64,000 nt of DNA from Aspidapion aeneum. Its lineage: Eukaryota > Arthropoda > Insecta > Coleoptera > Brentidae. The DNA is taken from positions 111,219,314 to 111,283,313 of the forward strand of contig OY755042.1 of NCBI GenBank assembly GCA_963576565.1, read 5' to 3'. A model generated the notes under the pieces. The model saw nothing but the letters and a program-made list of their open reading frames with translations. It ran no database searches and had not been told where the DNA came from. This document shows, piece by piece, positions 5,044 to 48,960 of this stretch; within the stretch, counting starts at the first letter, position 1; each line of letters starts with the position of its first letter. The position numbers and the translations under genes were made by a program.

Positions 5044-8000
5044 AAAAGATTGAAGAACCCCTATTAATTTTGTTTTAATAATGTATTTAAAATAAAATTC
5101 GTTGTACAATTTAGTTTTAGAAAACCGCTCTCACAAAGATAAAGAAATATTAAAAATTAATTATAAAAAAAATAAATCATGTAATGTTACAAGTACGGAT
5201 ATTTCAAAAAAAATATTTGTTTTATTTATTTAAAATTTTAAAAATGCACTTAACATTTCATCTTATTTAATTTTTGTACTTTGTATCATTGTACTTTCGA
5301 AAAATATTTAGACTATAGGAATTTTCGCAAGACGCGGCAACGCTGCAACAGATGCGGGTGAATGACCCAACATGTACTTCGCAATAAAAAATCCGACAGA
5401 GTAGACCGGCGGCGTCAACGTACGTATGAGGTAACGGTAACTGTTAACGATTCATATACTGGCGTACTTTCATGATTGTTCAAGATATAGTTTAAATATT
5501 TTAAACTCTAAATAAAACAACCACAAATATTCTTTCGACAATACCTCTTCCCTTTCGGAGCCAATAGCCATGATGATAGACAACCCCTCTGAAGTCTTTT
5601 TGAAATTATTAATATTTATAAAAAAGGTTTGAGAACTAAGAATATAAAATTTTAAAATAGACACCATTTTAATTCCGCCATATTCGATTTTTTAATAAAA
5701 TCTTCCACTTCATCATCTACGTACCTGCCAAAAACAGTAAGGATTAAAAAATAAAACTTTTTTTCTTTTTATTTTCCTTTATAAGTTGGTTTAAAAAAAA
5801 TAAAGATCTCTCTCTGTATTTGGACCACAAAGAAATCCTTATCCTTTATAAAATGCTTATTCGAGCAATTTCTTTGAAACCTGTGTTCCAGAAAACTCTT
5901 AACCTGAATTTTGGCTCTATTTTCATGTCACGTTAAAAGTCTTTCTCCGCTAAATCGGACGAGTTCATCGACCCCGCTGTTCGTTGTTGGAGTAAGGAGA
6001 CCCAATTAACTAGCCCCTTCGGAGAAGCGTGATACTCCAATTTTGATTTATTTATTCGAGATTGCGAGAAATGTTATATATGTTGAGATATTTCCTCTAT
6101 CGTAACCCGATCTAAGCATAATCCATCAATTGCATCGATTGCTAAAAATAAAGATTTTATGTTCTGATTGCAACAAGAAAGGACACTGGTAGTGCCCAGG
6201 AATTACGTGTGTGTTTCCCTAATCACTAATCGATTTAAACAAATCTTAGTTGGTTTTGGTAGAGATCGAAGTGATAGAGAAATAAAAGTAGGAGTTTTTT
6301 TAAGGATGACATCATCATTTTGTAAATTTGTTCTATCGTTTTTATTGTCAAAGAAATATCGGTAAAGTTGGCTGATTTTAGTTGAGATATTGGTAAAACT
6401 GCCCGCTTTTGTAAGATCGCGTTACATAAGTGGCGACAATACCTCCTAGGTTTATCTAGACAGTTTGATCTTTAGTTGTTTTTGTCACGTTTTGTAAAGA
6501 GATATTTTTATCCTCCACAAAACTGTTGTTCTTGTTAGAAAATCAGCCTGTGAGCACGAAAATCTTATTAATGGAAAGAAGGTTGTTAAATTATATTTTC
6601 ACTATAAAAAAAAGAGGTTGTTAGTTTATACTTAGATACACACGATTGTCTCATAAGTCAAGTTGTGTGTGTTAGAATTCTTTAGTGCAAAAGTGCAAGA
6701 TATGTTTGAAATTCCAGATGATGATCCAGATGACAATTTACTTACAATTCATTACCTTTATTATAGCTAACGATCAAAATATTTTTCACAATTCTTGGAG
6801 CTGTCACAAACTTACAAATTGTACGATTTAAACTACAAAATTAAACATAATGAACCCATTATTTGTCATCTCAAAATTTTCGATCGTGTGTGACGAAACA
6901 ACGCAAGGCAGCGGCGATTCGATTCTGAGAAGCGTCAAAAATTAGAGCAGGCACTCATTTCGAACCACGAAAATAATATAATAAAAGGTGAATGACACAA
7001 ATTAAGTTCATCAACAAAAAAAAACGAGCTGATTTGAGAAAAACATGACTGTATGCGACCTGGATTAAGATTTGAAAAATATTTACGATGTATAGTTGGG
7101 AATTACACAAAAATCACACGTGGAAAACAATTAATGACTCAATGAAATTCTTGTAGTGTCAATAATCCAAAAACAAAAAATAACTCCACAATACTTGGTA
7201 ATATTGACAAATTATTTGTTGAAAACCATTCAAGTAATGGCGCTAACAAAGTTCTAAACAATAGAAACAGTTTTGATTCAAAAATCAAGATAAACCCACC
7301 TATCCACGAGTAGTTAGTAACAATATTTATTTTAATTGTGTGGGTAGTTTCTAGCTACCCAAAAGAAAATGATAAAATAGGTACATACGAGTATTTATCC
7401 ATTGGAATAACTTGTGATAATTTTTCGGCAAGTACTTTAATTGTAAGTTTCAAAATTATCAAATTAAATTTGAACAATGAAATCTTTTTCAAAGAATATT
7501 ATGGTAAAGTTTGGTTAGCGTTGTATTTCTAAATGCACTGATTTAGTATTGTGTATGAACCATCGAAAATAAACCTGTAATTTGACAAACATAAAATTCT
7601 AACACAGGTCATTGATTTCAACGTAAGATCTCGTTCGCGCTTAAAGCAAAAAAATTAACAGCGCACGCGCCGGGATTGCAACGTGTGTTCGAGAGTTCAG
7701 TGAACTGCGCGCCACAGTCTCGTATTTCCCATGGTGTACACGTAATTCAAAAGTTCAAAAATTAGACCGACCTGAATTTGATTATAATAATTTTTATCTA
7801 GATCTAATCTAAGTTCGGTACTGGTTTTCAGTTTCTTAACTTGTTTGTTTTCAGAAAAATCGCCTTGTTTAAGTGGAGACATTTGGAAACTGGTTTAGAT
7901 TTTATTTTTCGAAGGCTTATATGGCCTCATTAGATCTTGCTTATATGAATGCCTTTGTTATTTGTTTATTTTTTTTGTTTCGAAGCTTCGAATTTATGCA

Positions 8001-21762: not shown

Positions 21763-22290
21763 CATCTATCTATCTATTTACCTTCTTCAGTTCATCTTTG
21801 GACATAGGCCTCCCCCAATATCTTCCACTCTTCTCTGGCCGTCGCCGTGTTCATCCCTCTAGTTCCCCCGTGTTTCTTCAAATCGTCCGCCCATCTCATT
21901 TGGGGTCTTCCCCTACTTCTTTTATTTTCCCAAGATCTCCAGTTTACAATACATTTGTTCTATCAATCGTCTTTCTGTCTGATAATATGACCGGCAAGTT
22001 TCCATTTTAATTTTGCTACTTCTCCTCTGACATCCCTTACTTTTGTTTTATTTATTATCCATTCGTTCCTCTTTCTATCTGTCAGTTTTACATGTACCAT
22101 TTGTCTTTCCATTAATCTTTGTGCTTTTGTTACCTTATCCATGTTTGATTTTGTAAGTGCCCAGGTCTGAGATCCATAGGTAAGTACAGGAAGGATACAT
22201 TGGTTATACACTTTCGTTTTGAGGTACTGAGGATATTTTGTATTTTTTAATATGTAGCTTAATTTACCGAATGCTGCCCAGGCCAATCTT
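21763..22290 (-). pseudogene. LINE family B, 3' fragment
   Basis: On the minus strand a 107-codon frame (21963-22286) encodes the post-RT region: FGKLSYILKN, then ILPVLTYGSQTWALTKSNMD, then LTDRKRNEWI and GEVAKLKWKLAGH. The element ends at 21763 with a (TAGATA)n-like tail. Frames break after K-L-A-G-H, so the last part is frameshifted. Related copies lie at 33310-33805, 34500-35640 and 50415-50715. Confidence 0.8.
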
Positions 22291-22299
22291 ACTCGTTAA

Positions 22300-23155
22300 G
22301 AGAACATAGTTTAGTTATATTTTATCCGCCTAATTCAACCTTTTGAAATTTTTTATAAATTAAAACAAAATTATTTTTGCTTTCTAGGTTGGGAAAAAAA
22401 ACTTTTTATTTATATTTCCTTCATTTTTCTTTTATTGTATTCATATTTTTATTAAAAAATTTCATAATACTTTGCTGTTTATCTGTTAAGAGCCCTGTAT
22501 ATGTCTGCTACTGGCGGTGGAAATATGTACATTTTTCCTTTAATTCAATTATTTTGATAATTTTTTCCACTGACAGTTTCTTGGAGAAAGGCTCAGAAAA
22601 AAGAAAATTTAAACAAAAGATAAATTAGTCAATTGCCGCTTGCGACCCACAAACCAATAATAATTTGTGTTTAAAAAGCAATTAAGGTGATCCACCAAAT
22701 TTTTTGAAAAAAATGGAACGATGAACGCGATGAAGGTTACACTTTAAGTAGTCCAGTTTAAGCCGTATCGAATAAATAACAAACAAAAGATATATTGTGT
22801 TGAGCAATGCAAATTTGGACAACAACCATTTTTACACACTGAAGGTTAAATCATTGAATACTGGAATAACAAATGACTACAAATCTCAACAATCATCAAC
22901 TCGAAGTCGTTTCATATTACCACAATATATGTAGATATCTATAGCTAATTTATCTACACTGTGACTGTGATAGTACTCTATTTCTTCAATAAATTTTTCG
23001 ACTTTTAAATTAAGCTTGACTGAAATTAGCGTTTTACCCCAAACATATTGCAACATAAGCATTTTATGTCCAATCTATCCCTTTTTTAACCTTAAAATTG
23101 TTTAAAATAGCCGCCAAAAAACTCTTTATATTATAGGAACATTGTCAGAGCACCG
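22300..23155. other. AT-rich non-coding
   Basis: No gene, array or element boundary was recognised between the LINE fragment and the (GT)n repeat. Confidence 0.35.
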
Positions 23156-23159
23156 TCAT

Positions 23160-23282
23160 CTTAAATTTTCGACTTTTTTTTCTATTCTAGCCATGGCTAG
23201 AAAAGGCATTGTTCGTGTGTGTGTGTGTGTGTCTGTCGGGCCCTCGATAGCTCCGGAACCGCTGGACCAATTTTCATGATAT
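23160..23282 (+). repeat. Partial (GT)n-bearing repeat
   Basis: A GT run near 23213-23231 is followed by CGATAGCTCCGGAACCGCTG. This resembles the repeats at 13390 and 32360. It abuts the first unit of the promoter-proximal array. Confidence 0.6.
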
Positions 23283-23378
23283 GTAAGTTCTAAATCAATG
23301 TAAATAGGACGACTTACATTTTTACTCAAGGAGTGCAATTCTAATTTGAGCTAGTTTTCGTTGGTAGCGCGCGATGCG

Positions 23379-23391
23379 AGTTCATCGACCG
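23379..23391 (+). promoter_or_regulatory. EcRE-like site, array unit 1
   Basis: AGTTCATCGACCG matches the IR-1 EcRE consensus at 11 of 13 positions. Confidence 0.3.
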
Positions 23392-23985
23392 CGCTCTACG
23401 CTTTGTAACGATCTACACGGCTGCTGTTTAAAAGCTCACTAGATCTCAATTTCAGCCAATTAGCGATTTGACAGATAACGTGCATACGTTATCTGCCAAA
23501 AAAATTAAAAAAATATGCAAAAATTAACAACAAAAAACACCAATTCGTCGCCTTGCAAAAAAATATATCGCTCGGTTAGGACAACGGCACACTTCGGCCT
23601 TGGTGACGAAACTAGCTACGTCCTTGTCTTGGGCAATAGCGGATTGAATAAGATCGAGTGAGACAGAATGATTTCGTAAAAACTAAGACTTTATTCAGAG
23701 GATAAATATTTTTTTCCCAGGATACATATGTAACTTACAACAAACGGTATAATGACGTCCATAATTGAGAGCTATTTACAGAAATCGTCAAAAATATATT
23801 TTAATAATAATATCATAAATTTTTTTCTTTTATGTATGTATCTCCAAATTATCTTTTTTATCTCTTTATTGTCTTATACGGACCCCTCTGTAAGTTCTAA
23901 ATCAATGTAAATAGGACTACTTACATTTTTACTCAAGGAGTGCAATTATAATTTGAGCTAGTTTTTGTTGGAAGCGCGCGATGCG

Positions 23986-23998
23986 AGTTCATCGACCG
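23986..23998 (+). promoter_or_regulatory. EcRE-like site, array unit 2
   Basis: Same 13-mer as unit 1, at the same place in the repeat. Confidence 0.3.
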
Positions 23999-24597
23999 CG
24001 CTCTACCCTTTGTAACGATCTCGCAATAATACCCGGCTGCTGTTTAAAAGCTCACTAGATCACAATTTCAGCCAATTAGCGATTTGACAGCTAACGTGCA
24101 TACGTTATCTGCCAAAAAAATTAAAAAAATATGCAAAAATTAACAACAAAAAACACCAATTCGTCGCCTTGCAAAAAAATATATCGCTCGGTTAGGACAA
24201 CGGCACACTTCGGCCTGGGTGACGAAACTAGTTACGTCCTTGTCTTGGGCAATAGCGGATTGAATAAGATCGAGTGAGACAGAATGATTTCGTAAAAACT
24301 AAGACTTTATTCAGAGGATAAATATTTTTTTCCCAGGATACATAACTTACAACAAACGGTATAATGACGTCCATAATTGAGAGCTATTTACAGAAATCGT
24401 CAAAAATATATTTTAATAATAATTTCATACATTTTTTTCTTTTATGTATGTATCTCCAAATTATCTTTTTTATCTCTTTATTGTCTTATACGGACCCCTT
24501 TGTAAGTTCTAAATCAATGTAAATAGGACTACTTACATTTTTACTCAAGGAGTGCAATTATAATTTGAGCTAGTTTTTGTTGGTAGCGCGCGATGCG

Positions 24598-24610
24598 AGT
24601 TCATCGACCG
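24598..24610 (+). promoter_or_regulatory. EcRE-like site, array unit 3
   Basis: Same 13-mer, same place in the repeat. Confidence 0.3.
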
Positions 24611-25234
24611 CGCTCTACACTTTGTAACGATCTCGCAATAATACACGGCTGCTGTTTAAAAGCTCACTAGATCTCAATTTCAGCCAATTAGCGATTTGAC
24701 AGATAACGTGCATACGTTATCTGCCAAAAAATTAAAAAAATATGCAAAAATTAACAACAAAAAACACCAATTCGTCGCCTTGCAAAAAAATATATCGCTC
24801 GGTTAGGACAACGGCACACTTCGGCCTGGGTGACGAAACTAGCTACGTCCTTGTCTTGGGCAATAGCGGATATAATAAGATCGAGTGAGACAGAATGATT
24901 TCGTAAAAACTAAGACTTTATTCAGAGGATAAATATTTTTTTCCCAGGATACATATGTAACTTACAACAAACGGTATAATGACGTCCATAATTGAGAGCT
25001 ATTTACAGAAATCGTCAAAAATATATTTTAATAATAATTTCATAAATTTTTTCTTTTATGTATGTATCTCCAAATTATCTTTTTTATCTCTTTTATTGTC
25101 TTATACGGACTCTTTTATTGTCTTATACGGACCCCTCTGTAAGTTCTAAATCAATGTAAATAGGACTACTTACATTTTTACTCAAGGAGTGCAATTATAA
25201 TTTGAGCTAGTTTTCGTTGGTAGCGCGCGATTTG

Positions 25235-25247
25235 AGTTCATCGACCG
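25235..25247 (+). promoter_or_regulatory. EcRE-like site, array unit 4
   Basis: Same 13-mer, kept although the base pairs just upstream differ from the other units. It lies about 400 bp before the predicted E75B start site, the closest of the four. Confidence 0.35.
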
Positions 25248-25645
25248 CGCTCTACGCTTTGTAACGATCTCGCAATAATACACGGCTGCTGTTTAAAAGC
25301 TCACTAGATCATAATTTCAGCCAATTAGCGATTTGACAGCTAACGTGCGTACGTTATTTGCCAAAAAAATTTAAAAAATATGCAAAAATTAACAACAAAA
25401 AAAACCAACTCGTCGCCTTGCAAAAAAATATATCGCTCGGTTAGGACAACGGCACACTTCGGCCTGGGTGACGAAACTAGCTGCGTCCTTGTCTTGGGCA
25501 ATAGCGGATTGAATAAGATCGAGTGAGACGGAATGACTCTCACTTTCACGCGCTGAACTGGCCTCGCAGGAGCTTATACTTCGGCGGGTCTTCGACCGAA
25601 AACTGGGTCAAATGTTCAACTGCTTGGCGAACTGGCATCGCGAGC

Positions 25646-25680
25646 TCAGTTCTACGTTGATTGTGTTAACGTTCAGACGT
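25646..25680 (+). promoter_or_regulatory. E75: E75B core promoter (Inr + DPE)
   Basis: TCAGTT at 25646-25651 matches the arthropod initiator TCAKTY, placing +1 at A25648. AGACG at 25675-25679 matches the DPE consensus RGWYV and sits exactly at +28 to +32; the extended form AGACGTG is the classic strong DPE. I see no good TATA box at -30, which fits a DPE-type promoter. The 5' leader to the first ATG would be 167 nt. The start site itself is inferred. Confidence 0.75.
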
Positions 25681-25814
25681 GACTTAATACTTTGTTACCA
25701 AAAAATCGTGTGTATCTAGTATTTACTTCAGTGCTATACTTCAAGACACGAATAATATATTATGTCACAGTGATTATAAATTAAAATTAGTTCAATTCGT
25801 TAGTTCAATCAATA

Positions 25815-26127
25815 ATGATGGCTGTGCTAAATTGTACCGAGTCCTTAGTGTCGCAAAACCAACAACCACAAACACCAAAAGACGTTATAAACGACACCAC
25901 CACTGATGAAAGCGGGTGTTCCTCAGGGAACAGTTCGGGGTGCGAAAGTAGTGACGATTGCTCAAATAAAGATTGTCCACAGGGTTTCTTCAGAAGAAGC
26001 ATCCAACAAAAGATCCAGTACCGACCATGCACCAAGAACCAACAATGCTCGATTCTAAGGATCAACAGGAACAGATGTCAATACTGCAGGCTCAAAAAAT
26101 GCATCGCCGTCGGAATGTCCAGAGATG
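25815..26127 (+). CDS. E75: E75B-specific first coding exon with second zinc finger
   Basis: Start of nuclear receptor isoform E75B. Residues 1-56 are isoform-specific: Ser/Asp-rich, ending in a Cys-rich stretch ([20 protein letters not shown]). Residues 57-104 are the second zinc finger of the E75 DNA-binding domain, beginning GFFRRS. Its zinc ligands are C72, C78, C88 and C91 (C-x5-C-x9-C-x2-C), followed by the GMSRD end. The first zinc finger with the P-box is absent. In known insects E75B lacks this finger, does not bind DNA well by itself, and acts as a nuclear corepressor partner of HR3. A good acceptor (TGTCCACAG) lies inside the exon at 25974-25982. It opens exactly at GFFRRS in phase 0, so A/C-type transcripts can use the same sequence as their zinc-finger-2 exon. 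Donor G|GTGAGTAA at 26128, phase 1. ATG 25815 is followed at once by a second ATG; either could initiate. Confidence 0.93.
25974..25984 (+). promoter_or_regulatory. E75: Internal alternative splice acceptor
   Basis: TGTCCACAG/GG places a 3' splice site at the conserved nuclear-receptor exon junction between the two zinc fingers (K/GFFRR). B transcripts read through it as coding sequence (CPQGFF). Transcripts from an upstream promoter carrying zinc finger 1 would splice here. The polypyrimidine tract is poor, which may help B transcripts retain the region. Confidence 0.75.
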
Positions 26128-26184
26128 GTGAGTAACAAAATTACTTTTTAAAACCAAAAAATGTGGCAGGTTTTGGGTCACTTC

Positions 26185-26197
26185 AGGTCAATGACCT
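26185..26197 (+). promoter_or_regulatory. Perfect palindromic EcRE (IR-1), with adjacent DR-4 half site
   Basis: AGGTCAATGACCT fits RGKTCANTGAMCY at all 13 positions and is the idealised palindromic EcR/USP site. A further half site GGGTCA at 26175-26180 forms a direct repeat with 4-bp spacing (GGGTCA-cttc-AGGTCA), another arrangement EcR/USP can use. It lies 58 bp inside the E75B intron, about 540 bp from +1. Confidence 0.75.
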
Positions 26198-26462
26198 CCC
26201 AAGACAACAAACGAAAATAAGTCCTAACTAAATTAAATTAAACAATACCGAAATAATTTTATCTATTGCTGATTTGTTCAATTTGAATTTTCAAAATAAA
26301 GCAGGATAATAAAAAATAATAATTTTTAGAATCAAACTTCAAACTATTTTTTTTTAATCTACAAAATTGTAACATTATTTATTTTTATAAACAGTTTTTC
26401 CTTAATTTTCTATAAACATTTTTTGTAACATATCCTTGTAACTTCTTCTTGAATTGTATAGG

Positions 26463-26475
26463 AGTTCAATGACCT
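26463..26475 (+). promoter_or_regulatory. Perfect EcRE (IR-1)
   Basis: AGTTCAATGACCT fits the EcRE consensus at every position. Confidence 0.7.
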
Positions 26476-26678
26476 CCTAGGTAGAGTTACCTTTCTACTA
26501 GAAATAGTACTATAACAGTACTGTTAATAATTACTTGAATAAATAATAGGACAAGCTTTTTTTCGTTAATAGTACCGATTTTTAAATATTTACCATTAGC
26601 AAATGATGTATTTAATAAATAATATTCTTTTATCAATAAATTAATTAAAAATCTAATTCAAAAATTTGATTGGGATTT

Positions 26679-26689
26679 AATTTGGGTCA
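26679..26689 (+). promoter_or_regulatory. ROR/HR3/E75 monomer site
   Basis: AATTTGGGTCA fits WAWNTRGGTCA, the A/T-extended half site bound by the HR3 (ROR) and E75 (Rev-erb) pair. It is 13 bp upstream of the next EcRE. About one chance match is expected per window of this size, so the support is mainly positional. Confidence 0.45.
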
Positions 26690-26702
26690 TTCCAGGGCCT
26701 CG

Positions 26703-26715
26703 AGTTCATTGACCT
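26703..26715 (+). promoter_or_regulatory. Perfect EcRE (IR-1)
   Basis: AGTTCATTGACCT fits the EcRE consensus at every position. It is the consensus version of the AGTTCATCGACC core in the upstream array. Confidence 0.7.
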
Positions 26716-27002
26716 TTTAGGAAGCCTATGAATAAATAAGGTCGTCAACATATATCACCATACAATCTTTTATATTTAATTTTGTTTTTAATTTGATCTA
26801 ATTCTTTTATCATTAACGTTTAATTTTTTTAAACCGAATATTTACTTTTTAAATAAAGTTATTAATAAGTGCGCAAGGTTATTCAACTTTGTCAAAAATT
26901 TTATCATTTTTCAGTCTAAGATTTTTTTTGTGTTGCTGTTGTTATTTACGCAAATGTCAATCCGTGATATAATTATTCGTTGTTGTTAAAAATATACTTG
27001 AA

Positions 27003-27013
27003 AATTTAGGTCA
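27003..27013 (+). promoter_or_regulatory. ROR/HR3/E75 monomer site
   Basis: AATTTAGGTCA is a full match to WAWNTRGGTCA, 287 bp beyond the third EcRE. E75 and HR3 compete for such sites, so it could serve feedback on E75 itself; this is inference. Confidence 0.45.
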
Positions 27014-27719
27014 CTGTGGTGCTAGTTCGTTCACCTCACATTTAAAAAATCCTTGAGTCAATTACAACAAAATTTTGAAAGTTTTCGACCTTCAACAACG
27101 CTGCTTGATATTGCAGTAATACATATTCATTTATATTTTTCGTTGTTTATTATTATCTACCCGCCTACCTACTTCAACGATGGATGATGTATTAGTTGAC
27201 TTGAGCAAGTATACTTTATTTGTTGAAAAATTTTTATGTTGTATAACAATCTTTATTGGGGACATCTTTAATTGTTATTAGTCATCATGTTCTTGTTCCA
27301 ATTTTTATAGAATATCATCTATAAACCTATGAGTAGTAAGGCTTTTTCAATCTTTTATTTAATATATTTAATTCAATAATTTTAAAAAGTTTATGTCAAT
27401 ATTTCATGACGTTAATTTAATTAATCATTTTCAGAATAATTAGTTTACCCTTTTCGCTTTTGTCTTTCATTAATTAAAATTGATGTATATTCTCTTCGAA
27501 ATTAAGCCCGGGAAATTTCCAAATTACTGACAGCTCATTTATTTGGGCACAAAAATCAACCTGTAGGGCTGAGGGGTAAAATATAGGTCGTCCAGGTCCC
27601 GGGGTGAATGACCGTTCTAGGTCGTCGTTCGCAAAACTCTGAAAATTACCAAAACTGAGCGAACTTCGTATTAAATCTACATACAAAGGTATATCCACCA
27701 AAAGAAAATATAATCTACC

Positions 27720-28100
27720 AAAGTTGAGCGACCTTAGGGCTCGTAAAGTATCTCAACAGTAGATCACATCGCTTTAACCGCAGTGATACATCAAACTTGA
27801 GCGACGGTGTCGTATGAATAGTGTGGAGCGGTTGTTCGCATCGCTGAACGCGCGCTGACGCAAAGCCCGATCGAGAAAGTTCAACGCGGGCGAGTTCATC
27901 GACCCCTTGCTCGCTTAATCGTAGTAGGTCATTGCAAACCCCGCGCTTTATTTTAATAACTACTACTGACTTCTCAGATATCTACCAGCGGTCATACTCG
28001 AAAGTTTTACACGCCCGTTACTCGCTCACAGGTCGACCAAATAAACATCCATATATGGTGAAAGTGTCGCTGGTGTGGCGCCTTCACCAAATTCGCAAAA
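27720..28100. other. CpG-rich island in E75B intron
   Basis: This CpG-rich stretch contains a 12-of-13 EcRE (AGTTCATCGACCC at 27893-27905). Its flanks resemble those of the array sites and of 5962. No exon is evident. It may be an enhancer or a further minor promoter. Confidence 0.35.
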
Positions 28101-28200
28101 TATAATTTATTTTTAGATATTTCTAGCATGGAGGGCTATTACAGCGATCGTCAAAAACAAATTTTTATTTCCCCCCAAAACAAGTTATTTCGGTAAACGA

Positions 28201-28703
28201 TAGAGGTATTGAAAAAGTAACTATTCGTTATTCGAGTACTCGACAAATAACGGAGTAACGAATACCGATCCGAAAATTAATTGATTACTTTTGTTACTTT
28301 GATTACTTTGATTCGTTCGATTATTTTAGTATTCAGTAATCACTAGAAAGTCGGTAACTATGATAACCTAAGTAACTAACTAAATATTTTTTAAGTTCTC
28401 ATCTAAGATTGTTATTTTTGTCTCTATTTTTATTTACTTTTAGATTCTAAGTATGTATTTCTTTGTATGTAAGGCATTAGATTTTTAAAACACAAAGAAC
28501 AGTTCCTACGTAATTCCTACCTTTATTTTTTTATTATTAGCCAGCATTTTGAAAATTTCAATTGAATATTTCCATAATATCAACAACAAAAATATAGTAT
28601 GATTGAATTGAATACAGTTACAGTAATCAAAGTAACGATAGGAACGAATATATAAAATGATTGTAGTCGAGTAAAGAAAAAGTAGCGAAAATCAACACCT
28701 CTA
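28201..28703. mobile_element. hAT-like non-autonomous element, copy 1
   Basis: The element is 503 bp and bounded by TAGAGGTATTGAAAAAGTAA and the inverse end ATCAACACCTCTA. A perfect 8-bp target duplication, GTAAACGA, flanks it at 28193-28200 and 28704-28711. TAGAG ends and an 8-bp duplication are hAT hallmarks. There is no transposase. It is family-related to 30221-30889. Confidence 0.9.
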
Positions 28704-28711
28704 GTAAACGA

Positions 28712-30212
28712 GGGCTAAATATTTGTGCCTGTCTGTCTAAACATGATAACTCAAAAACCGATTTTAACCAAATTTTGCACAAAAATTTCGTGGTACCCGT
28801 GAATTAGAGGATGCAATTTTGGTGAGGGTGGAGGGCTGCAAGGTTGTAGTAGGGGTTCAAATATTCCTTCTGTCCATGGTTAGATTAAGTTTTTGAGATA
28901 ATGAAATTTAAAAAGACATCATATCTTACGAACCACATCAGCTACCGAAACGCAGTTTGCAAATTTAGATATATTTTTAACAATATTTGTGATAGGGGCA
29001 AAGTTAGCCAGTAGTTAAAAAATTTGACTGGGATCAAGGACCAGAATTTTTTTTTAAATCTATCTTAAATAACTTAACTGTAAATTGCTTTATGGGCAAA
29101 AAATATTTAATAAAAAAATCAAGAACTTTTAAAGAACAGTTTAATAAGTAAAAAAAATTGTTATACAACAAAAAATATCAAACAAGTTTCGTGGGTAATC
29201 GGATGAAAACGAGTTTTTGCTTCTCTCATATTTTTTCGTGAATAGCTTAAAAGCTTAAACTCACGGGGCTCCAAGATCTAATGGACACCTAATAAGTGTT
29301 GACAGTTAACTGTTTCGTCCTTATAGGACTCCTCAGAACATTGCTTGGTCAATGTGACACCCTTGCGGAGTTAATTAGACGGTTTTGTCTCTAATCCTAT
29401 GTAAATAGTGAGAAAACTCTGGCAAGAAGCGCCATCTACCGAGATACGAAAGAAACTTGAACAAGAGCAGGCGAAAATAAACTGCTATACATATCGATCA
29501 ATGAAAAGATCGATTACAAATAAAAAGAAACAAACCATCCGTGATCTACGACAGATCTTCTGCCTTTCAGGCCAGATCAACGTTGATTGCGTTTTTTTCC
29601 CGCCATCAGACACGTGAGCGTCAATCAGCGGAAATTTTAAGACAAATATTACTAAAAAACGTGAAATTTTGTACCCGTCAATTTCACGTTTGTTAACAAA
29701 AAATATTTTGACTAGGCCTTCCGAAATGCATCCAATAAAGAATGCAAAATATGGGAGTGGACGTGGGGGGAGGGCAAGAATTCAAAACTTAATCGTTAAT
29801 TTCTACCTACTGGACAGCAAATCATATTCAGTACCTATTGTGATATAAATATAAATAAATATTTATAGTAAGCCAGTTTAAATGATGGTTGAAAGTGTTA
29901 AAAGTAGGCCGACGAACTCGAGGCTCGCGGGTTCGAGTTCACACGTACAGAAGTCGACGGCCTCAACCAACTTTTCGAATCGATGCAGTAGGCATTTACC
30001 GCCACAGCCAGCGTTGATGATGGTGTGGTAATTGTTTGCTAACAACCAACCAATGACGTTAAAGTTCTGGGTGTATTTTGGTCAGAGATTCTAGAACGAC
30101 TAGAGATTGGATTCAGTGTTACCAGACTTGAAGGATTTCCTTAAATATGAAGGGTTTTGATCTAATATTTTGACTATTACAGGACTGAAGGTTTTTATCC
30201 GGATTTGAAGCA
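28712..30212. other. Intronic non-coding sequence
   Basis: A block near 29270-29335 (CCAAGATCTAATGGACACC, then TCCTTATAGGACTC) recurs in variant form at about 31848-31915, so part of this is an interspersed repeat. The frame at 29408-29617 matches no family I recognise. Confidence 0.35.
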
Positions 30213-34046: not shown

Positions 34047-34499
34047 TACTTATTATAATAGGCCCTTTTCCGCTGTGTTGTGTTGCTCTTGTTAGGAGTT
34101 ATCGGTATAAGCATAATTGATAGCAAACAAACAGTTTTAGGGTTTTTTTAACTTCGCTGAGGCTGCCAAATACCTAGATTCAGCCCTGAATGTACAAATA
34201 GAAGCTATTGACCGCCAAACAACAAAAATAACTTTTACTCACGCGTGAAACTGGCACAGAGAAAGTAAAATAATTTCACCGCCGCGCACTGCTGGCGAAG
34301 AATGAAAGTTTTTCGTTTGGGTTCAACATTTCTTTATTTCTTTTGCGACCCGATCATCAGCCCCGTTACCGGACATCATGCGAATGGAAAGTTGCGTTAT
34401 TTCGTAATGCAACAACGCAAATGCAACCTTTTCTCGACTTATTTTTCTCTACTTACAAGAGAAATTTTACAATCCACCACTTTAAGACAAGAAGTATAA

Positions 34500-35640
34500 T
34501 TGCTGCAATGACAAAAGGGATCTTAGCTCAAACAATAACAAAAATATTAGTAACTCAGTGGCCTCAGAAGCGGTTTTAATAATACAAGAACACAACATTC
34601 CACTATATATTCCATTTATAGACTTTGAAAAAGGTTTCGATAGCATTGAGCACTGGACAGTAAAAGCATCTTTAATTAATGGCCGAATAGATCACAGATA
34701 CACAGATTTATTAGCCAATATATATAGCGAAGCAACAACATCAATCAAAATCCTCGAAGGAACCAAGCTAATCATCGTAAGAAAAGGTGTCAGACAGGGA
34801 GACACAATATCCCCTAAACTATTTAACCAGGCCCTAGAAGATGTTTTTAAAAACTTAGATTGGGAAGAAATAGGCATCAAAATAAACGGACAATACTTGA
34901 ACCACCTAAGATATGCTGACGATATCGCCTTAATAAAAGATAAGAAAGAAGAACTGATCAAAATGCTGAAATAGCAGGATACAGCAGCTAAAAATATAGG
35001 CTTAAGTGTGAACTACGCTAAAACTAAAATCATAACAAACACAGATGAAGATATCACTGCCAGAATAAATCAAGAAAAAATAGAACAAGTACAGGAAAAT
35101 CTTTGACAAAAAGAGGACCAAACCGCTGACCAAGTGGCAGCATTCGGTAAATTAGGCTACATATTAAAAAATAAAAAATATCGTCAGCACCTCAAAACGA
35201 AAGTGTATAACCAATGTATCCTTCCTGTACTTACCTATGGATCCCAGACCTGGACTCTTGCAAAATAAAACATGGATAAGGTAACAAAAGCTCAGAGATC
35301 AATGGAAAGACAAATGTTCCTGTAAAACTAACAGATAGAAAAAGGAATGAATGTATAAGAAATAAAACAAACGAGATGTCAGAGACCTCTCCTCAAAATT
35401 AAAATGGAAATTTCGCCGGTCATAATATCAAACAGAAAAATGATCGATGGAATAAATGTATTGTAAAGTGGAGACCTCGGGAAAATAAAAGAAGTAAGGG
35501 AAGACCCCAAATGAGAAGGCGGACGATTTGAAGAAAGACGGGAACTATAGATGAATGAATGCACATGGCGACAGACAGAGAAGAGTGAAAGATATTGAGG
35601 GAGGCCTATGTTTAAAGATGGATTTAAGAAGGATAAAAAT
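34500..35640 (+). pseudogene. LINE family B reverse-transcriptase copy
   Basis: The best RT remnant of the window. A 138-codon frame (34558-34974) holds motif A (PFIDFEKGFDS), motif B (KGVRQGDTISPKLF) and motif C (LRYADDIAL, the YADD catalytic pair). Downstream, frameshifted pieces continue to the FGKLGYILKN and VYNQCILPVLTYGSQTW blocks near 35140-35260, and to the terminal GG(A)GGCCTATG block near 35600. Fingers, endonuclease and ORF1 are missing: 5' truncated and dead. Confidence 0.85.
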
Positions 35641-35644
35641 ATAG

Positions 35645-36770
35645 AATATGTAGTTAGAATGGTAATGTCAAACGCATGATGTTCCCATTCTTTTTTATTT
35701 TGGTTGGTTGTGAAATTAAATCTCTAACAATTGTTCTAGAATGTCTGCTTAGCGATGATGTGTAGCTAACGCTCTCTAGCTTCAAAACACATGAACTAAG
35801 CTTGATGACGTGCGCCCAACTGAAACTCAAATCACCCCTATTGATCCATATAAATTGAGGCCTCAAAAGGTTTAAACTTACTCCAAAGAGTTTCAGATCG
35901 ATACTAAATACTGTTGTCTCTGTTTGATACATGAGAGTTGTTTTGTTCCGAGAAAGTTTGATTTCGTCGGATTGAGAAGTTGAAGTTAAATTATTAAAAT
36001 GGGGAAGTTTTGCTTTGTATACTTGTTGTTTGTTAGATGTCGCTTGTTATTCTAAGTTTCTAAATTATTGTTTTTGTTTAAAGGTTGTTCATAATCATAA
36101 TACACGATTAAATACTTAGTTTAATCATGTATTTTAACACGACTAATAGAATGAGGAAATACACTAGTATTATTTGTGTTATTGAGACTCGATATAGATA
36201 GTTAATGCGTCATTTTTAATGCACACATGTAAAAATTTTCCTTGAAATGCCCTTCCTCGAGCAGTTAAAAAATATGAAAATCTACGATTATTATTTGTTC
36301 CCCCAAGGTCTGCGACTATTTATTTTAAACAAGGCTCCAAGGTTTTTAATCGTTGACGGACATTTTAGTTTTTAAATTGAGAAATTTTTCCGCGTATTCA
36401 TGAAAATAAATAAGTACTTGAAGCAAACAAATATGTTTAGATAACTTTGTCCGAGAACCGTCTAACGCGTCATTGAATTTTTTTATAATTAGATCATTTT
36501 ATCCTAGCAAAACAAATTTATGGATAATAAATTTTTTTTAAAAAAATTTGGCACTAGGTACTTAAATAATTATTTCGAGGTCAATGAACCTGTGATAAAA
36601 ATAAATTTTTGTTTTGATGAAATTTAAGAAACTTGTTTTTGACTTTTTAACCCTGATAGATAAACGCAGAAAAAAATTAATGCACAAAAAATTTAGCACA
36701 CAAAATTACACCTTGATTCTCGTGCAATAATTTCAAATAATGGTAGTAAATTAAAAAAACAACAAAAAAA
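35645..36770. other. Intronic sequence with one EcRE
   Basis: No gene recognised. The minus-strand frame at 35654-35932 has no family resemblance I can name. A perfect EcRE lies at 36578-36590. Confidence 0.35.
36578..36590 (+). promoter_or_regulatory. Perfect EcRE (IR-1)
   Basis: AGGTCAATGAACC matches RGKTCANTGAMCY at all 13 positions. It lies about 3 kb upstream of the E75D exon, just before the pogo-like insertion. Confidence 0.6.
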
Positions 36771-37924: not shown

Positions 37925-38965
37925 GTATTTTTCTGTTACGCGACAAGTCTCTATTCCATACAACAGTTTGCTGTTCACCATTGTTTCATATATGTTAAAT
38001 TTTATATTCTTTTTTATCTCTTTGCTCCATAAAATATTGTTAAGACATCCAATAACCCCTTTTTTACTTTTACTATTCTTTTTTCCAGTTCTTTACAGTC
38101 TGTTCCTGTCTTACTAAATGTGACACCCAAGTATACATACTCATTGCATGGAGATATTACTTGTCCATTGTCTAGTTCTAACTCACTAGATTCGTTTCCA
38201 ATACATAAGTACTGTATCTTGTCCACGTTTACTGTAATTCCCCACTATTGGTATTCTTCCATTAACGTTCTCATCATATATTCCATGTCTTCTTTATCAT
38301 TAGCTACAGTTACTTGGTCGTCAGCAAACTGTAGTGTGTATATGGTAAATCGGTCGTTAAGTTGTATTCCCATGCCGTGCACCTTATGTTTCCAGTTTCT
38401 TAGAGCTACTGCGATATATATTTTTAAAAGAGTTGGAGAGATACAACATCCTGTCTTAAGCCTTTTGTTACCAGGAATTCTTTTGAATGTGGATTTCCAA
38501 TTTTAATTTTAGATTTTGACGCTTTTTATAGTTCTTTTATCGCTTTTATGTATGTATGATTGATACTAGTCTGCTCTAACACTGTCCATAATTTTTCTAC
38601 AAAAACGGTATCATATGCTTTTTGTAGGTCCACAAAGGTAACATGAGTCTCTATATTTCTGGCGCTCCTTTTCTGAATTACTTGTTTAAGACAAAAAACA
38701 TTATCACTACAAGATCTGCCTGCACGAAACCCACTTTGCTCTTCTTCTTCTTCATGAAAATCATCATCTATTAGATCTCTAAGAATCCTACCGTACAATC
38801 TACTTAGAGTACTGGTTATTGAAATTCCTCTGTAATTGTTGCAATCCAGCTTGTTTCCTTTTTTATGTATTGAGGATATGAATGCAATTTTCCAATCATC
38901 ATGACTGGAAATTAGTGTGTGAATATTATCTGCAAAATAAGAAACTAGCAATTACATTATTTAAA
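37925..38965 (-). pseudogene. LINE family A reverse-transcriptase copy
   Basis: Minus-strand frames 38526-38951 and 38014-38226 cover RT fingers and palm. They show DWKIAFISSIHKKGNKLDC, NYRGISITSTLSRLYGRILR, EEQSGFRAGRSC and FVDLQKAYDTV (motif A). After a gap comes the thumb region EYVYLGVTFSKTGTDCKELE. The catalytic D-D motif remnant lies in frameshifted sequence between. Truncated at both ends and interrupted. The intron position suggests it is passive baggage. Confidence 0.85.
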
Positions 38966-41514: not shown

Positions 41515-41756
41515 CTGTCAGATTCGGCAGGGTGCCGAAAAGAGAAAAGGCGCGAATTTTAGCGGCCATGCAGCAAAGTTCCAACTCCAGGAGTATAGAA
41601 AAAGCTGTCGCAGCAGAATTAGACGACGAACAAAGGCTTCTGGCCACTGTGGTGCGAGCACATGTGGACACTTGTGATTTCACCAGGGACAAAGTTGAAC
41701 CCATGCTTCAGAGGGCGAGGGAACAACCATCCTACACGGCGTGCCCTCCTACTTTG
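41515..41756 (+). CDS. E75: E75 common hinge exon
   Basis: This 242-nt exon is shared by B and D (and presumably A/C). It has acceptor TTCCTTGTTACAG (phase 1 in) and donor TTG|GTAAGC (phase 0 out). It encodes the C-terminal extension of the DNA-binding domain (VRFGRVPKREKARILAAMQQ), which in A/C-type isoforms contacts the A/T-rich 5' flank of the response element. The hinge and first helices of the ligand-binding region follow, ending CPPTL. Residues 105-185 of E75B. Basic residues after VRFGR may serve nuclear import. No internal ATG use is needed, since both upstream exons supply starts. Confidence 0.95.
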
Positions 41757-42581: not shown

Positions 42582-44357
42582 GCTTGTCCGCTGAATCCCA
42601 ATCCGCAGCCATTGACTGGTCAGCAGGAATTACTGCAAGACTTCTCCAAGAGATTCTCTCCAGCCATTCGTGGAGTTGTCGAATTCGCCAAGCGGATTCC
42701 TGGATTTTCGCTTTTGTCGCAGGACGATCAAGTTACCCTGCTGAAAGCTGGAGTTTTCGAAGTGTTGCTCGTGCGTCTCGCATGCATGTTTGACGCGCAA
42801 ACGGCCAGCATGGTCTGTTTGAATGGACAAGTGTTAAAAAGAGACTCAATTCACAATAGTTCTAATGCGCGGTTTCTAATGGACAGTATGTTTGATTTTG
42901 CCGAGAGAATGAATTCGCTTAGGCTATCCGACGCCGAAATCGGTCTGTTCTGCTCGTTAGTGGTGATAGCGGCCGATCGACCCGGTCTAAGAAATGTAGA
43001 ATTAATCGAGAAAATGCATAACAAACTAAAACATGCCCTGCAAATTGTTGTTAGCCAAAACCATCCGAATGCTCATCAGATTCTCGATGAACTGATGAAG
43101 AAAGTACCAGATCTCCGCACTTTAAACACGTTGCACTCTGAGAAATTGCTAGCATTCAAAATGACGGAACAACAACAAATGATGCAACAACAGCATCATA
43201 TGTGGAGCTCAAACTCTGAAGAAGATGGTAGTAGCAAAAGTCCAGCTGCTTCATCATGGTCTTCTTCGTCCGATGTTACAATGGAAGATGCCAAATCTCC
43301 ATTGGGTTCCGTCTCAAGCACAGAATCGATGTGCTCTTCTGAAATGATCTCAAATGATTACCACGTGCCTCACCACGTTAGTTCTAATGCCGCTAGTGCA
43401 CCACTTCTAGCCGCCACTCTTGCAGGTGGTCTATGTCCACACAGACACAGAGCTAACTCTGGCTCTACTTCTTCGGGCGATGACGAACTGGCTGCAACAT
43501 CACACTTGATTCATAACGGGCTCACTATTACTCCAGTTTCTAGGCCGGTACCTAACCATAACAGATTCAGAAAATTAGATTCTCCTAGCGATTCAGGAAT
43601 TGAATCAGGTACCGAAAAAGTAGACAAACCAACCTCTGTCTGCTCTAGCCCTAGATCTTCCGTTGAAGATCATCACATTGTTGAAGATATGCCCGTTCTA
43701 AAGCGTGTGTTGCAAGCCCCACCATTGTATGATACCAATTCATTAATGGACGAAGCTTACAAACCCCACAAGAAGTTTAGAGCTTTGAGAAACAAAGATT
43801 CGGCCGAAGCAGAGTGCACAGTTGTTGTATCTCCACCCCCAGTGCAATCTCAGTTGTTATCGCAATTGACAGCTCCACCCCAAAGCTCATTATCCAGCTC
43901 GCATTCAATGCTGGCCAAGAGCTTGATGGAAGGTCCAAGAATGACCGCTGAGCAAATGAAAAACTCTGAAGTGATTCATAGTTTTATCATGAGAAACGAA
44001 GCTGGGTCGACGCAAAACTCTCCAATGGTGACGGCATCGCCTACTGCTTGCCCTTACAAGAACAGAGACACACAATCACCATGGGCTACAAGTGTGATAA
44101 CCACTACCGGTAGGCAGATGCACACACCGTCACCACAGCCTCAAGAATACGCGAGGCTGTATCTTAAGGCTCAGTCGCCTCATTCGACGTCACCGGCTCC
44201 ACCTCACAGTCCGCACTCGACGTTGTTGTCACCTTCTAGCTTACCAAAAGTCGAGTTGCAAATAGACATAGCGGATTCACAACAACCTTTAAATTTATCT
44301 AAAAAATCACCGTCCCCGTCACCGAGGCCCCTCAAAGTGGTCACTTTAGAGGTGTAG
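42582..44357 (+). CDS. E75: E75 ligand-binding domain and C-terminal tail, last exon
   Basis: 591 codons, stop TAG 44355-44357; residues 186-776 of E75B. The first 200 residues are the heme-binding ligand-binding domain. They include the nuclear-receptor signature FAKRIPGFSLLSQDDQVTLL and the helix-8 to -10 region SDAEIGLFCSLVVIAADRPG. The LLAFKMTE end is where insect E75 and Rev-erb lack an activating helix 12, fitting constitutive repression. The tail is Ser/Pro/Gln-rich: QQQ runs, DSPSDSGIESG (residues 518-528; DSGIES at 522-527 fits the beta-TrCP/Slimb degron), many S-P sites, and PLNLS (754-758) close to the end, like a CtBP-binding motif. Length and order match other insect E75 proteins. 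Reading is clean, with no frameshift. Confidence 0.97.
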   Translation, partial: ACPLNPNPQPLTGQQELLQDFSKRFSPAIRGVVEFAKRIPGFSLLSQDDQVTLLKAGVFEVLLVRLACMFDAQTASMVCLNGQVLKRDSIHNSSNARFLMDSMFDFAERMNSLRLSDAEIGLFCSLVVIAADRPGLRNVELIEKMHNKLKHALQIVVSQNHPNAHQILDELMKKVPDLRTLNTLHSEKLLAFKMTEQQQMMQQQHHMWSSNSEEDGSSKSPAASSWSSSSDVTMEDAKSPLGSVSSTESMCSSEMISNDYHVPHHVSSNAASAPLLAATLAGGLCPHRHRANSGSTSSGDDELAATSHLIHNGLTITPVSRPVPNHNRFRKLDSPSDSGIESGTEKVDKPTSVCSSPRSSVEDHHIVEDMPVLKRVLQAPPLYDTNSLMDEAYKPHKKFRALRNKDSAEAECTVVVSPPPVQSQLLSQLTAPPQSSLSSSHSMLAKSLMEGPRMTAEQMKNSEVIHSFIMRNEAGSTQNSPMVTASPTACPYKNRDTQSPWATSVITTTGRQMHTPSPQPQEYARLYLKAQSPHSTSPAPPHSPHSTLLSPSSLPKVELQIDIADSQQPLNLSKKSPSPSPRPLKVVTLEV

Positions 44358-45999: not shown

Positions 46000-48960
46000 A
46001 AAAAATCCAAAAAACCCTAAAAATGGATCACAAAAACTGACTTTAAATAGCCTCAGTTTTCTTGATTTCATTACTCAAAAATTCAGTATCCTAAAAGCAA
46101 GTATCTATGTCAAGTTTTTTTCTACCAGAAAAATAAGACTTTTTTTTTTCATTTTAAATACCCTTAATATTTTAATGTACATTTAACATATTTATTTGCT
46201 TCTGGGATACAGAAAGAGAATACAAAAATAAATGGAACAATGGTTTAAACCATGTATCCTAATAAAAAAAAGAAAATATTAAAATAACATTAAAAAAAGC
46301 GTATAAAAATATCTAAAAGATTTTTAGCGATCAAAAATCCTAAAAAACTTAAAAAGGGATCACAAAAACTGACTTTAAATAGCCTTAGTTTTCTTGATTC
46401 CATTACTCAATATCTGAATTCTAAAAGCAAAGTATCTATGTTAAGTTTTTTCTTCCAGAAGAAAGGGTTTTTTAATTTTAAATGCCCTTAATATTTTAAT
46501 GTGTATTTAACATATTTATTTGCTTCTGGGATACAGAAGGAGATTACAAAAATAAAAGGAACAATGGTTTAAACCATGTATCCTAACAAAAAAAAAGAAA
46601 ATATAAAGATAACATTAAAAAAAGTGCATAAAAATGTCAAAAAGATTTTTAGCGATCAAAAATCCTAAAAAACTTAAAAAGGGATCACAAAAACTGACTT
46701 TAAATAGCCTTAGTTTTCTTGATTCCATTACTCAATATCTGAATCCTAAAAGCAAAGTATCTATGTTAAGTTTTTTCTACCAGAAGAATAAGGCTTTTTT
46801 TGTTTTAAATGCCCTTAATATTTTAATGTGCATTTAACATATTTATTTGCTTCTGGGATACAGACAGAAAATACAAAAATAAAAGGAACAATGGTTTAAA
46901 CCATGTATCCTAATAAAAAAAAGAAAATATAAAGATAACATTAAAAAAAGTGTACAAAAATATCTAAAAAATTTTTAGTGATCAAAAATCCTAAAAACCT
47001 TAAAAAGAAATCACGAAAACTGAGTTTAAATAGCCTCAGATTTCTTAATTCCATAACTCAATATCTGTATCCTACAAGCAAAGTATCTATGTTAAATTTT
47101 TTCTACCAGAAGACAGGGTTTTTTAATTTTAAATGCCCTTAATATTTTTATGTACATTTAACTTATTTATTTGCTTCTGGGATACAGAAAGAGAATACAA
47201 AAATAAAAGGAACAATGGTTTAAACCATGCATCCTAAATAAAAAAAAGAAAATATAAAGATGACATTAAAAGATGTCTGAAAGATTTTTAGGGATCAAAA
47301 ATCATAAAAACCTTAAAAGGAATCACAAAAACTGACTTTAAATAGCCTCAGATTTCTTGATTCCATAACTCAATATCTGTATCCTACAAGTAAAGTATCT
47401 CTCGATCTATGTTAAGTTTTTTCAACCAGAAGAAAGGGTTTTTTAATTTTAAATGTCCTTATTATTTTAATGTGTATTTAACATATTTATTTGCTTCTGG
47501 GATACAGAAGGAGATTACAAAAATAAAAGGAACAATGGTTTAAACCATGTATCCTAATAAAAAAAAGAAAATATAAAGTTGATATTAAAAAAAGTGCATA
47601 AAAATGTCTAAAAGATTTTTAGTGATCAAAAATCCTAAAAACCTTAAAAAGGGATTACAAAAACTGACTTTAAATAGCCTCAGTTTTCTTGCCTCCATTA
47701 CTTAATATCCGTATCCTACAATCAAAGTATCTATGTTAAGTTTTTTCTACCAGAAGAAAGGCTTTTTTTTATTTTAAATGCCCTTAATATTTTAATGTGC
47801 ATTTAACATATCTATTTGCTTCTGGGATACAGAAAGATAATACAAAAATAAATGAAACAATGGTTTAAACCATGTATCCTAATAAAAAAAAGAAAATATA
47901 AAGATAACATTAAAAAAAGTGCATAAAAATGTCTAAAAGATTTTTAACGATCAAAAATCCTAAAAAACTTAAAAAGGGATCACAAAAACTGACTTTAAAT
48001 AGCCTTAGTTTTCTTGATTCCATTACTCAATATCTGAATCCTAAACGCAAAGAATCTATGTTAAGTTTTTTCTACCAGAAGAAAGGGTTTCTTAATTTTA
48101 AATGCCCTTAATATTTTAATGTGTATTTAACATATTTATTTGCTTCTGGGATACAGAAGGAGATTGCAAAAATAAAAGAAACAATGGTTTAAACCATGTA
48201 TCCTAATTCAAAAAAAAAAATATATAAAGATGACATTAAAAAAAGTGCATAAAAATGTCTAAAAGATTTTTAGTGATCAAAAATCCTAAAAACTTTAAAA
48301 AGAAATCACAAAATCTGACTTTAAATAGCCTCAGATTTCTTGATTCCATAACTCAATATCTGTATCCTACAAGCAAATTATCTATGTTAAGTTTTTTCTA
48401 CCAGAAGAAAGGGTTTTTTAATTTTAAATGCCCTTAATATTTTAATGTGTATTTAACATATTTATTTGCTTCTGGGATACAGAAAGAGAATACAAATATA
48501 AAAGGAACAATGGTTTAAACAATGCATCCTAATAAAAAAAATAAAATATAAAGATGACATTAAAAAAAGTGCATAAAAATGTCTAAAAGATTTTTAGCGA
48601 TCAAAAATCCTAAAAAACTTAAAAAGGGATCACAAAAACTTTAAATAGCCTTAGTTTTCTTGATTTCATTATTCAATATTTGTATCCTACATGGAAAGTC
48701 CCTAGGTATGCTAAGTTTTTTTTCCAGCAGCCTTTATGAGTTTTACCTTGATTTATAGAAACGCTTTTTAAGTTAAAATACCCTTACACTTAACATATTT
48801 ATTTGTTTCTGCGATACAGAAATAATAGGAGAATACCTATGAGACATAAAAGGAACAATGGTTTACTATATTGTAACCTTGTAACCTAATAAAAAAAAAG
48901 AAAATTTAAGGGTACCTACTTATTGACATTAGGAAAAAGTACATAAAATGTCTTAAAAGA
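46000..48960 (+). repeat. Satellite array, about 325-bp unit, about nine copies
   Basis: The landmark GATTTTTAGCGATCAAAAATC recurs every 316-328 bp (46318, 46642, 46967, 47283, 47611, 47938, 48265, 48590). A partial first unit precedes and a decayed last unit follows. Every unit has the 14-bp palindrome ATGGTTTAAACCAT (one mismatch in one unit) and a TGCTTCTGGGATACAGA block. The 60-67-codon frames inside (MSKRFL..., repeated) are periodic by-products and not genes. It begins only about 40 bp after the last E75 polyadenylation signal. Confidence 0.93.

What the first reader, a model, noticed from the sequence alone, without database searches (positions are those of the whole stretch)
26185..26715. 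Cluster of three perfect ecdysone response elements at the start of the E75B intron
AGGTCAATGACCT (26185), AGTTCAATGACCT (26463) and AGTTCATTGACCT (26703) each fit RGKTCANTGAMCY at all 13 positions. With equal base frequencies the motif is expected about 0.06 times in 64 kb; here it occurs three times in 531 bp, plus once at 36578. E75 is a classic primary ecdysone target, so an intronic EcR/USP enhancer next to the B promoter is the natural reading. The sequence match is seen directly; activity is inferred.
Basis: partly seen in the sequence, partly recalled or inferred. Interest (0 to 1): 0.85.

Follow-up and report, generated by a model that had tools for sequence, protein, structure and literature searches.

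The report
Ecdysone-receptor site cluster in beetle E75
Just downstream of the predicted start of a beetle's moulting-hormone response gene E75B lies a tight cluster of sites that fit the moulting-hormone receptor's known target sequence, far more than chance would give, so it is very probably a hormone-responsive switch of a known kind, with a few unusual extras.

Summary
In detail: all three 13-mers fit RGKTCANTGAMCY exactly. Chance gives 0.037 per window by composition or 0.069 by the genome-wide rate (1378 places in 1.286 Gb). Of 720 permuted palindromes this one ranks first, and of inverted spacers 0-8 only spacer 1 occurs. All 5 perfect sites found in 264 kb lie at 7694-36590. The cluster is not a detectable repeat.

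The gene is a beetle E75. One Inr+DPE pair in the window predicts an E75B start near 25648, so the sites lie at +537 to +1067.

Beyond the finding: (1) ROR/Rev-erb-type half-sites sit beside two of the three sites. (2) A variant, GAGTTCATCGACC, occurs 10 times in the genome, 6 of them here, in three unrelated contexts. (3) Four of those six lie in a tandem array just upstream of the E75B start.

Best reading: an EcR/USP enhancer of E75B, ordinary in kind. Binding, hormone response and conservation could not be tested.

The parts
26185..26197 (.). Perfect IR1 EcRE, site 1 (AGGTCAATGACCT, full palindrome)
   Evidence: 13 of 13 positions; one of 27 AGGTCANTGACCT in the genome; predicted +537 from the E75B start
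26463..26475 (.). Perfect IR1 EcRE, site 2 (AGTTCAATGACCT)
   Evidence: 13 of 13 positions; predicted +815
26703..26715 (.). Perfect IR1 EcRE, site 3 (AGTTCATTGACCT)
   Evidence: 13 of 13 positions; predicted +1055
26171..26180 (+). ROR/Rev-erb-type half-site TTTTGGGTCA (loose form) before site 1
   Evidence: fits WWNTRGGTCA, not strict AWNTRGGTCA
26680..26689 (+). ROR/Rev-erb-type half-site ATTTGGGTCA before site 3
   Evidence: fits strict AWNTRGGTCA; consensus recalled
27004..27034 (+). ROR/Rev-erb-type half-site ATTTAGGTCA followed by a degenerate IR1, AGTTCGTTCACCT (27023 on), two mismatches
   Evidence: half-site fits strict form; the degenerate IR1 was picked by eye after the fact
27892..27931 (+). 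Variant IR1 GAGTTCATCGACC(C) at 27892 with half-site TAGTAGGTCA (loose form) at 27922
5961..5974 (+). Variant IR1 GAGTTCATCGACC(C) in the upstream intron
7694..7706 (.).
36578..36590 (.). Perfect IR1 AGGTCAATGAACC in the same intron as the cluster
23282..25536 (+). Tandem array: three copies of a ~610-bp unit and one partial copy (23282-23883, 23889-24495, 24501-25110, 25138-25536), each with GAGTTCATCGACC (23378, 23985, 24597, 25234)
   Evidence: 96-97% identity to copy 3; no other match of the unit longer than about 150 bases among scored candidates
25646..25680 (+). Predicted E75B core promoter: Inr TCAGTT (A+1 at 25648) with DPE AGACGT at +28
   Evidence: the only Inr+DPE pair among 199 Inr-like sites on both strands; consensi recalled; start site not measured
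25601..25610 (+). ROR/Rev-erb-type half-site AACTGGGTCA at -47 from the predicted start
   Evidence: fits strict AWNTRGGTCA
25815..26127 (+). E75B coding exon: B-specific start fused to zinc finger 2
41515..41756 (+). E75 coding exon
42582..44357 (+). E75 last coding exon, ligand-binding domain and C-terminus

Best explanation
The cluster at 26185-26715 is a set of genuine ecdysone response elements forming an intronic enhancer of E75, chiefly of the E75B promoter that lies about 0.5-1.1 kb upstream. When 20-hydroxyecdysone rises, EcR/USP bound to the IR1 sites recruits coactivators and drives E75B transcription. Shown here: the sites, their enrichment, the absence of a detectable second copy, the gene, and a predicted start. 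Inferred: EcR/USP binding, hormone response, and E75B as main target. Inferred with less confidence: the neighbouring ROR/Rev-erb-type half-sites let HR3 or the two-finger E75 isoforms adjust or end the response.
For: Exact fit to the canonical consensus at three sites in 531 bp. First of 720 permuted palindromes, and only spacer 1 of 0-8 occurs. Five in 64 kb where the genome-wide rate gives 0.069. All 5 perfect sites of 264 kb lie at 7694-36590; one-mismatch sites 11 in the window against 4 in 200 kb of flanks. Each of the three sites lies in a GC island (0.38-0.47) between spacers of 0.18-0.22, and the 45 flanking bases without the motif are still 0.38-0.44. Gene is E75. Printed precedent: 20E-responsive, EcR-bound E75B enhancers in silkworm (PMC9502983, passages), a Bombyx E75-A EcRE bound by EcR/USP (PMC3498158, passages), 20E-responsive upstream E75 fragment in Tribolium (PMC11068786, passages), multiple EcREs in Drosophila E75A (PMC4553631, passage).
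Against: No binding, expression or conservation data. A consensus fit alone is a poor predictor in this genome: 670 of the 1378 fits are one word, GGTTCAATGACCT, and the three copies compared share flanking sequence; another frequent fit lies inside a retroelement reading frame. AGGTCANTGACCT is no more than slightly commoner (27) than its reversed control (20) genome-wide. No listed AGTTCANTGACCT (first 100 of 195) or AGGTCANTGACCT place lies within 200 kb of another nuclear-receptor DNA-binding exon, so such sites do not visibly mark the other receptor genes, though the first list was cut. In silkworm 52.65% of EcR peaks held an EcRE motif, so motif and binding are only partly coupled (PMC6109983, abstract and passage).
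Confidence: 0.78

Rival explanations
1. The sites are chiefly read by other nuclear receptors (HR3, two-finger E75 isoforms or others that bind AGGTCA half-sites), so the cluster is a feedback element of the HR3/E75 circuit and not a direct ecdysone switch.
For: Five WWNTRGGTCA in 25500-28000, all +, where 1000 shuffles give mean 0.167 and maximum 2; three fit the strict form. It is the densest 2.5 kb of 264 kb. HR3 acts on RORE-linked genes and E75 isoforms repress it (PMC4499807, passage).
Against: Only spacer-1 inverted repeats are enriched, which points to an EcR/USP-type dimer. Site 2 has no such half-site within 200 bp, nor do the other eight IR1 and variant sites outside 26185-27893. 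The half-site pattern was chosen after I had seen the companions.
Confidence: 0.1
2. The sites bind EcR/USP but serve other E75 isoforms or silence rather than activate, the intron being shared.
For: The intron follows the finger 2 exon used by two-finger isoforms; the finger 1 exon lies about 30 kb upstream. In silkworm two E75B enhancer regions lose activity with 20E (PMC9502983, passage).
Against: The cluster is about 1 kb from the predicted E75B start and about 30 kb from finger 1.
Confidence: 0.07
3. The cluster was brought in by a mobile element or repeat and has no regulatory role.
For: Many genome-wide consensus fits are repeat-borne. Site 3 has a GGTCA 13 bases before its IR1, as does a gypsy-like element, though the 13 letters between agree at only 4.
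Against: The 973-bp stretch finds no other copy; its one other match is 60 bp at 81% and holds no site (the search skips very common words). Four element copies give no match to the window at E 1e-5.
Confidence: 0.03
4. Chance.
For: The motif was picked by a reader who knew the gene.
Against: the 720-pattern control allows for choice among motifs of the same make-up.
Confidence: 0.02

Closest known systems
Canonical IR1 ecdysone response element of Drosophila, RGKTCANTGAMCY (as quoted in PMC3498158, passage)
   Same: All three sites and two more in the window fit 13 of 13 positions
   Different: Not shown to bind EcR/USP; clustered in an intron of a beetle gene
20E-responsive E75B enhancers of silkworm (PMC9502983, passages)
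   Same: Same gene and isoform; EcR bound; EcREs present; noncoding regions including introns
   Different: Other insect order; sequences not compared here
Bombyx EcREs of EcR-B1, E75-A and HR3-B, KCRGGTCWWCGMWC (PMC3498158, passages)
   Same: CG in place of TG in the second half, as in the beetle variant GAGTTCATCGACC; RGGTCWWCGMWC agrees at 10 of 12 positions (my comparison)
   Different: The full 14-mer has no match in the window; the authors report no similar motif outside Lepidoptera
Upstream E75 EcRE fragment of Tribolium (PMC11068786, passages)
   Same: Beetle E75, 20E-responsive in TcA cells
   Different: Upstream fragment predicted with the Bombyx consensus; sequence not seen
Multiple EcREs over 30 kb upstream of Drosophila E75A (review PMC4553631, passage; the original, Bernardo 2009, not seen)
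   Same: Many EcREs spread over one E75 gene
   Different: There upstream of E75A, here around E75B
[quoted passage not shown] described in PMC10712084, passages; the form AWNTRGGTCA is recalled)
   Same: Five loose and three strict fits near the E75B start, in the insect Rev-erb-family gene
   Different: Several are GGGTCA; binding not shown

Membership tests
Ecdysone response element (IR1) | Fit to RGKTCANTGAMCY | tested here: met
   13 of 13 positions at three sites
Ecdysone response element (IR1) | Enrichment over chance with spacer 1 | tested here: met
Ecdysone response element (IR1) | Lies in an ecdysone-induced gene | tested here: met
   E75 by homology; induction in this species not measured
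Ecdysone response element (IR1) | Bound by EcR/USP | not testable with these tools
   needs ChIP, CUT&RUN or gel shift
Ecdysone response element (IR1) | Confers 20E response | not testable with these tools
   needs a reporter
Ecdysone response element (IR1) | Conserved among related beetles | not tested
   no related beetle DNA was reachable; the genome has no relatives in the collection
Bombyx-type EcRE (for GAGTTCATCGACC) | Full KCRGGTCWWCGMWC | tested here: not met
   no match in the window; so the variant is not filed under it
ROR/Rev-erb response element | AWNTRGGTCA (recalled) | tested here: inconclusive
   3 of 5 half-sites in 25500-28000 fit strictly, 2 loosely
ROR/Rev-erb response element | Bound by HR3 or E75 | not testable with these tools
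   needs a binding assay

The most novel reading that the evidence does not exclude
In this beetle E75 carries a gene-specific regulatory code: canonical EcREs paired with ROR/Rev-erb half-sites, so that hormone input and HR3/E75 feedback meet on one intronic module, plus a private EcRE variant, GAGTTCATCGACC, found in three unrelated E75 contexts and at only four other places in 1.286 Gb, and amplified to four copies in tandem just upstream of the E75B start, which may raise its hormone sensitivity.
Probability: 0.25. Interest if true: 0.7.

Novelty: new member of a known kind. Interest (0 to 1): 0.5.

Why it matters
EcREs of early ecdysone genes are hard to find by sequence alone (so stated in PMC3498158, passage). 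A dense cluster next to a predicted start gives a ready reporter target in beetles. If the variant motif and its tandem amplification work, one could test how binding-site dosage sets hormone sensitivity, and whether a CG-type EcRE like that of Lepidoptera also acts in beetles.

Tried and rejected
Repeat origin of the cluster: no second copy found. Low-stringency alignments of 26128-28100 to four gypsy-like and three repeat loci gave many weak, AT-rich matches (best E 1.7e-8, to L002, at cluster bases 1216-1368, outside the three sites); treated as uninformative.

Island-to-island alignment with masked cores is flawed: masked letters matched each other. Only its unmasked pairs (site 1 with 4, site 3 with 4) say anything; nothing rests on it.

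FTZ-F1 sites YCAAGGYCR: four in the window, none between 23604 and 39157; CACGTG: none in 22000-29000; one CACGCG at 25547; Bombyx 14-mer: none in the window; the looser RGKTCWWCGM has 12 matches, six of them the variant sites.

Other nuclear-receptor genes: 23 exon positions typed from the 34 matches were compared with the first 100 of 195 AGTTCANTGACCT (contigs C1 to part of C4 only) and 26 AGGTCANTGACCT outside E75: none within 200 kb; nearest 220 and 271 kb. In the same lists the closest pair is 3.9 kb apart (105 gaps).

Genome-wide GGTCA-N0-25-IR1: 179 places, reversed control 14; 59 of the 100 listed rows are one identical 31-mer by my hand count, and many others one further word family, so the count says little about composite elements.

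Genome-wide count of RGKTCANCGAMCY: not completed.

Printed precedent: nine library searches listed no paper that I recognised, from title and abstract start, as reporting an intronic E75B EcRE cluster in a beetle; no held paper contains RORE, EcRE and E75 together. The library lacks most subscription journals.

Full report
Observation. With one mismatch allowed there are 11 matches against a shuffle mean of 1.30, largest 6 of 100 shuffles.

Chance. The expectation for 64 kb is 0.037 from composition and 0.028-0.039 under Markov models. The whole genome (1,286,157,303 bases, 149 contigs) holds 1378 places, reversed control 359: 0.069 per 64 kb, five or more P about 1.2e-8. GGTTCAATGACCT alone makes up 670 of the 1378, reversed control 7. 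The three copies that I compared share 124-204 aligned bases at 77-86%, so much of the background is probably repeat-borne; without that word the expectation is 0.035. Of 720 patterns made by permuting the half-site, RGKTCANTGAMCY ranks first with 5 hits (mean 0.047). Two of the 720 reach three hits in 600 bp, the second being a near relative that counts the same sites. Inverted spacers 0 and 2-8 give none. In 264 kb around the gene the 5 perfect sites lie at 7694-36590, and the 200 kb of flanks hold none. With one mismatch it is 11 in the window against 4 in the flanks. Against: AGGTCANTGACCT has 27 places in the genome against 20 for its reversed control, so that palindrome is hardly enriched overall.

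Gene. Spliced from three exons the protein has 776 residues and matches beetle E75; the best hit is 87% identical over 95% (Cylas formicarius), and 1765 of 7989 scored candidates pass E 0.001. Its start MMAVLN and single finger recur in Callosobruchus analis, Acanthoscelides obtectus and Henosepilachna (three of the five proteins fetched; the other two are two-finger forms), so this is the E75B form. A first-finger exon of the E75A kind lies at window position -3698, about 30 kb before finger 2. The finger 2 exon is fused to the B-specific start, so the intron after it is probably shared by all isoforms (inference). One Inr+DPE pair among 199 Inr-like sites predicts the E75B start near 25648 (consensi recalled). 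The three sites are then at +537, +815 and +1055.

Nature of the cluster. The stretch 26128-27100 finds no second copy; its one other match is 60 bp at 81%, outside the sites (that search skips very common words). Each site lies in a GC island (0.38-0.47) while the spacers are 0.18-0.22; the 45 flanking bases without the motif are 0.38-0.44. Selection on short islands in decaying intron DNA would leave such a picture, but it does not replace a comparison of species.

Half-sites beside the EcREs. WWNTRGGTCA, a loose form of the ROR/Rev-erb element, occurs 12 times in the window on both strands, 5 of them in 25500-28000, all +. Shuffles of that stretch give mean 0.167, and 0 of 1000 reach 5; the strict form occurs 3 times, and 0 of 1000 reach 3. 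It is the densest 2.5 kb of 264 kb, which holds 30 in all. Of the 11 perfect and variant sites checked, three (26185, 26703, 27893) have one within 15-28 bp centre to centre; the other eight, site 2 (26463) among them, have none within 200 bp. A degenerate IR1 at 27022 also has one, but it was picked for that reason. About 1.5% of the window lies within 40 bp of such a half-site. The pattern was chosen after I saw the companions, so these figures overstate the case. Genome-wide, 179 places have GGTCA within 25 bases before an IR1; most of the 100 rows listed belong to two word families, one of them in the reading frame of a gypsy-like element.

A variant site. A search for 12-14-mers (G+C at least 40%) that recur in three or more unrelated contexts of the window returns, besides CA repeats, one family around CTCAGAATCCCTCA and one around CGAGTTCATCGACC. 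GAGTTCATCGACC occurs 10 times in the genome (reversed control 3), 6 in this window, all +. Of the four others one is in frame in a reverse-transcriptase-like reading frame (L013), one in a coding-like frame reading EFIDLL (L014), and two lie amid or beside retroelement-like reading frames (L021, L022) (names are my reading of the translations). In the window the contexts are 5961, 27892 and the tandem array. Bombyx EcREs that bind EcR/USP also carry CG at this place (PMC3498158, passages), but the full Bombyx consensus is not met. The variant was found in the data and then counted, so its rarity is partly selected.

The array. Three copies and one partial copy of a ~610-bp unit, 96-97% identical to copy 3, fill 23282-25536 and end 112 bp before the predicted start. 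Outside the array the unit's matches (53 of 57; 40 of 173 candidates scored) cover about 150 bases or less, all in unit positions 416-563, which is a dispersed repeat. So a promoter-proximal segment was amplified, probably recently. Whether it matters to the hormone response is unknown.

Mechanism. Most likely EcR/USP sits on the IR1 sites and, with 20E, activates E75B (confidence 0.78). A part for HR3 or E75 through the half-sites is plausible. Single-finger E75B is stated to be incapable of binding DNA in Bombyx (PMC4499807, passage), so feedback would come from two-finger isoforms or by protein contact.

Known or new. EcREs in E75 genes are known from Drosophila, Bombyx and Tribolium. This is a new member of a known kind. 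The variant motif, the half-site pairing and the array are unusual, but their function is untested. All papers cited were seen as passages, not whole.

Noticed in passing
window 23282-25536: Tandem array of a ~610-bp unit, three copies and a partial one, ending 112 bp before the predicted E75B start; each copy holds GAGTTCATCGACC.
   Followed up: partly
L002-L004 and genome-wide: GGTTCAATGACCT, a perfect fit to the EcRE consensus, occurs 670 times in the genome (reversed control 7); three copies share flanks, so a dispersed repeat probably spreads it.
   Followed up: partly
L045-L048: A perfect EcRE fit (AGTTCAATGACCT) lies inside a reverse-transcriptase-like reading frame of a gypsy-like element, 90-98% identical between four copies; probably a coding coincidence.
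   Followed up: partly
window 46001-48699: Tandem array with a 325-bp unit, 8.3 copies, downstream of the last E75 exon.
   Followed up: no
window 10836, 12607, 13105: CTCAGAATCCCTCA recurs in three contexts, on both strands, in the upstream intron; not identified.
   Followed up: no
window 34486-34974, 38526-38951, 54090-54767, 62515-63766: Reverse-transcriptase- or RNase-H-like reading frames of retrotransposon remnants in and beside the gene (named by eye).
   Followed up: no
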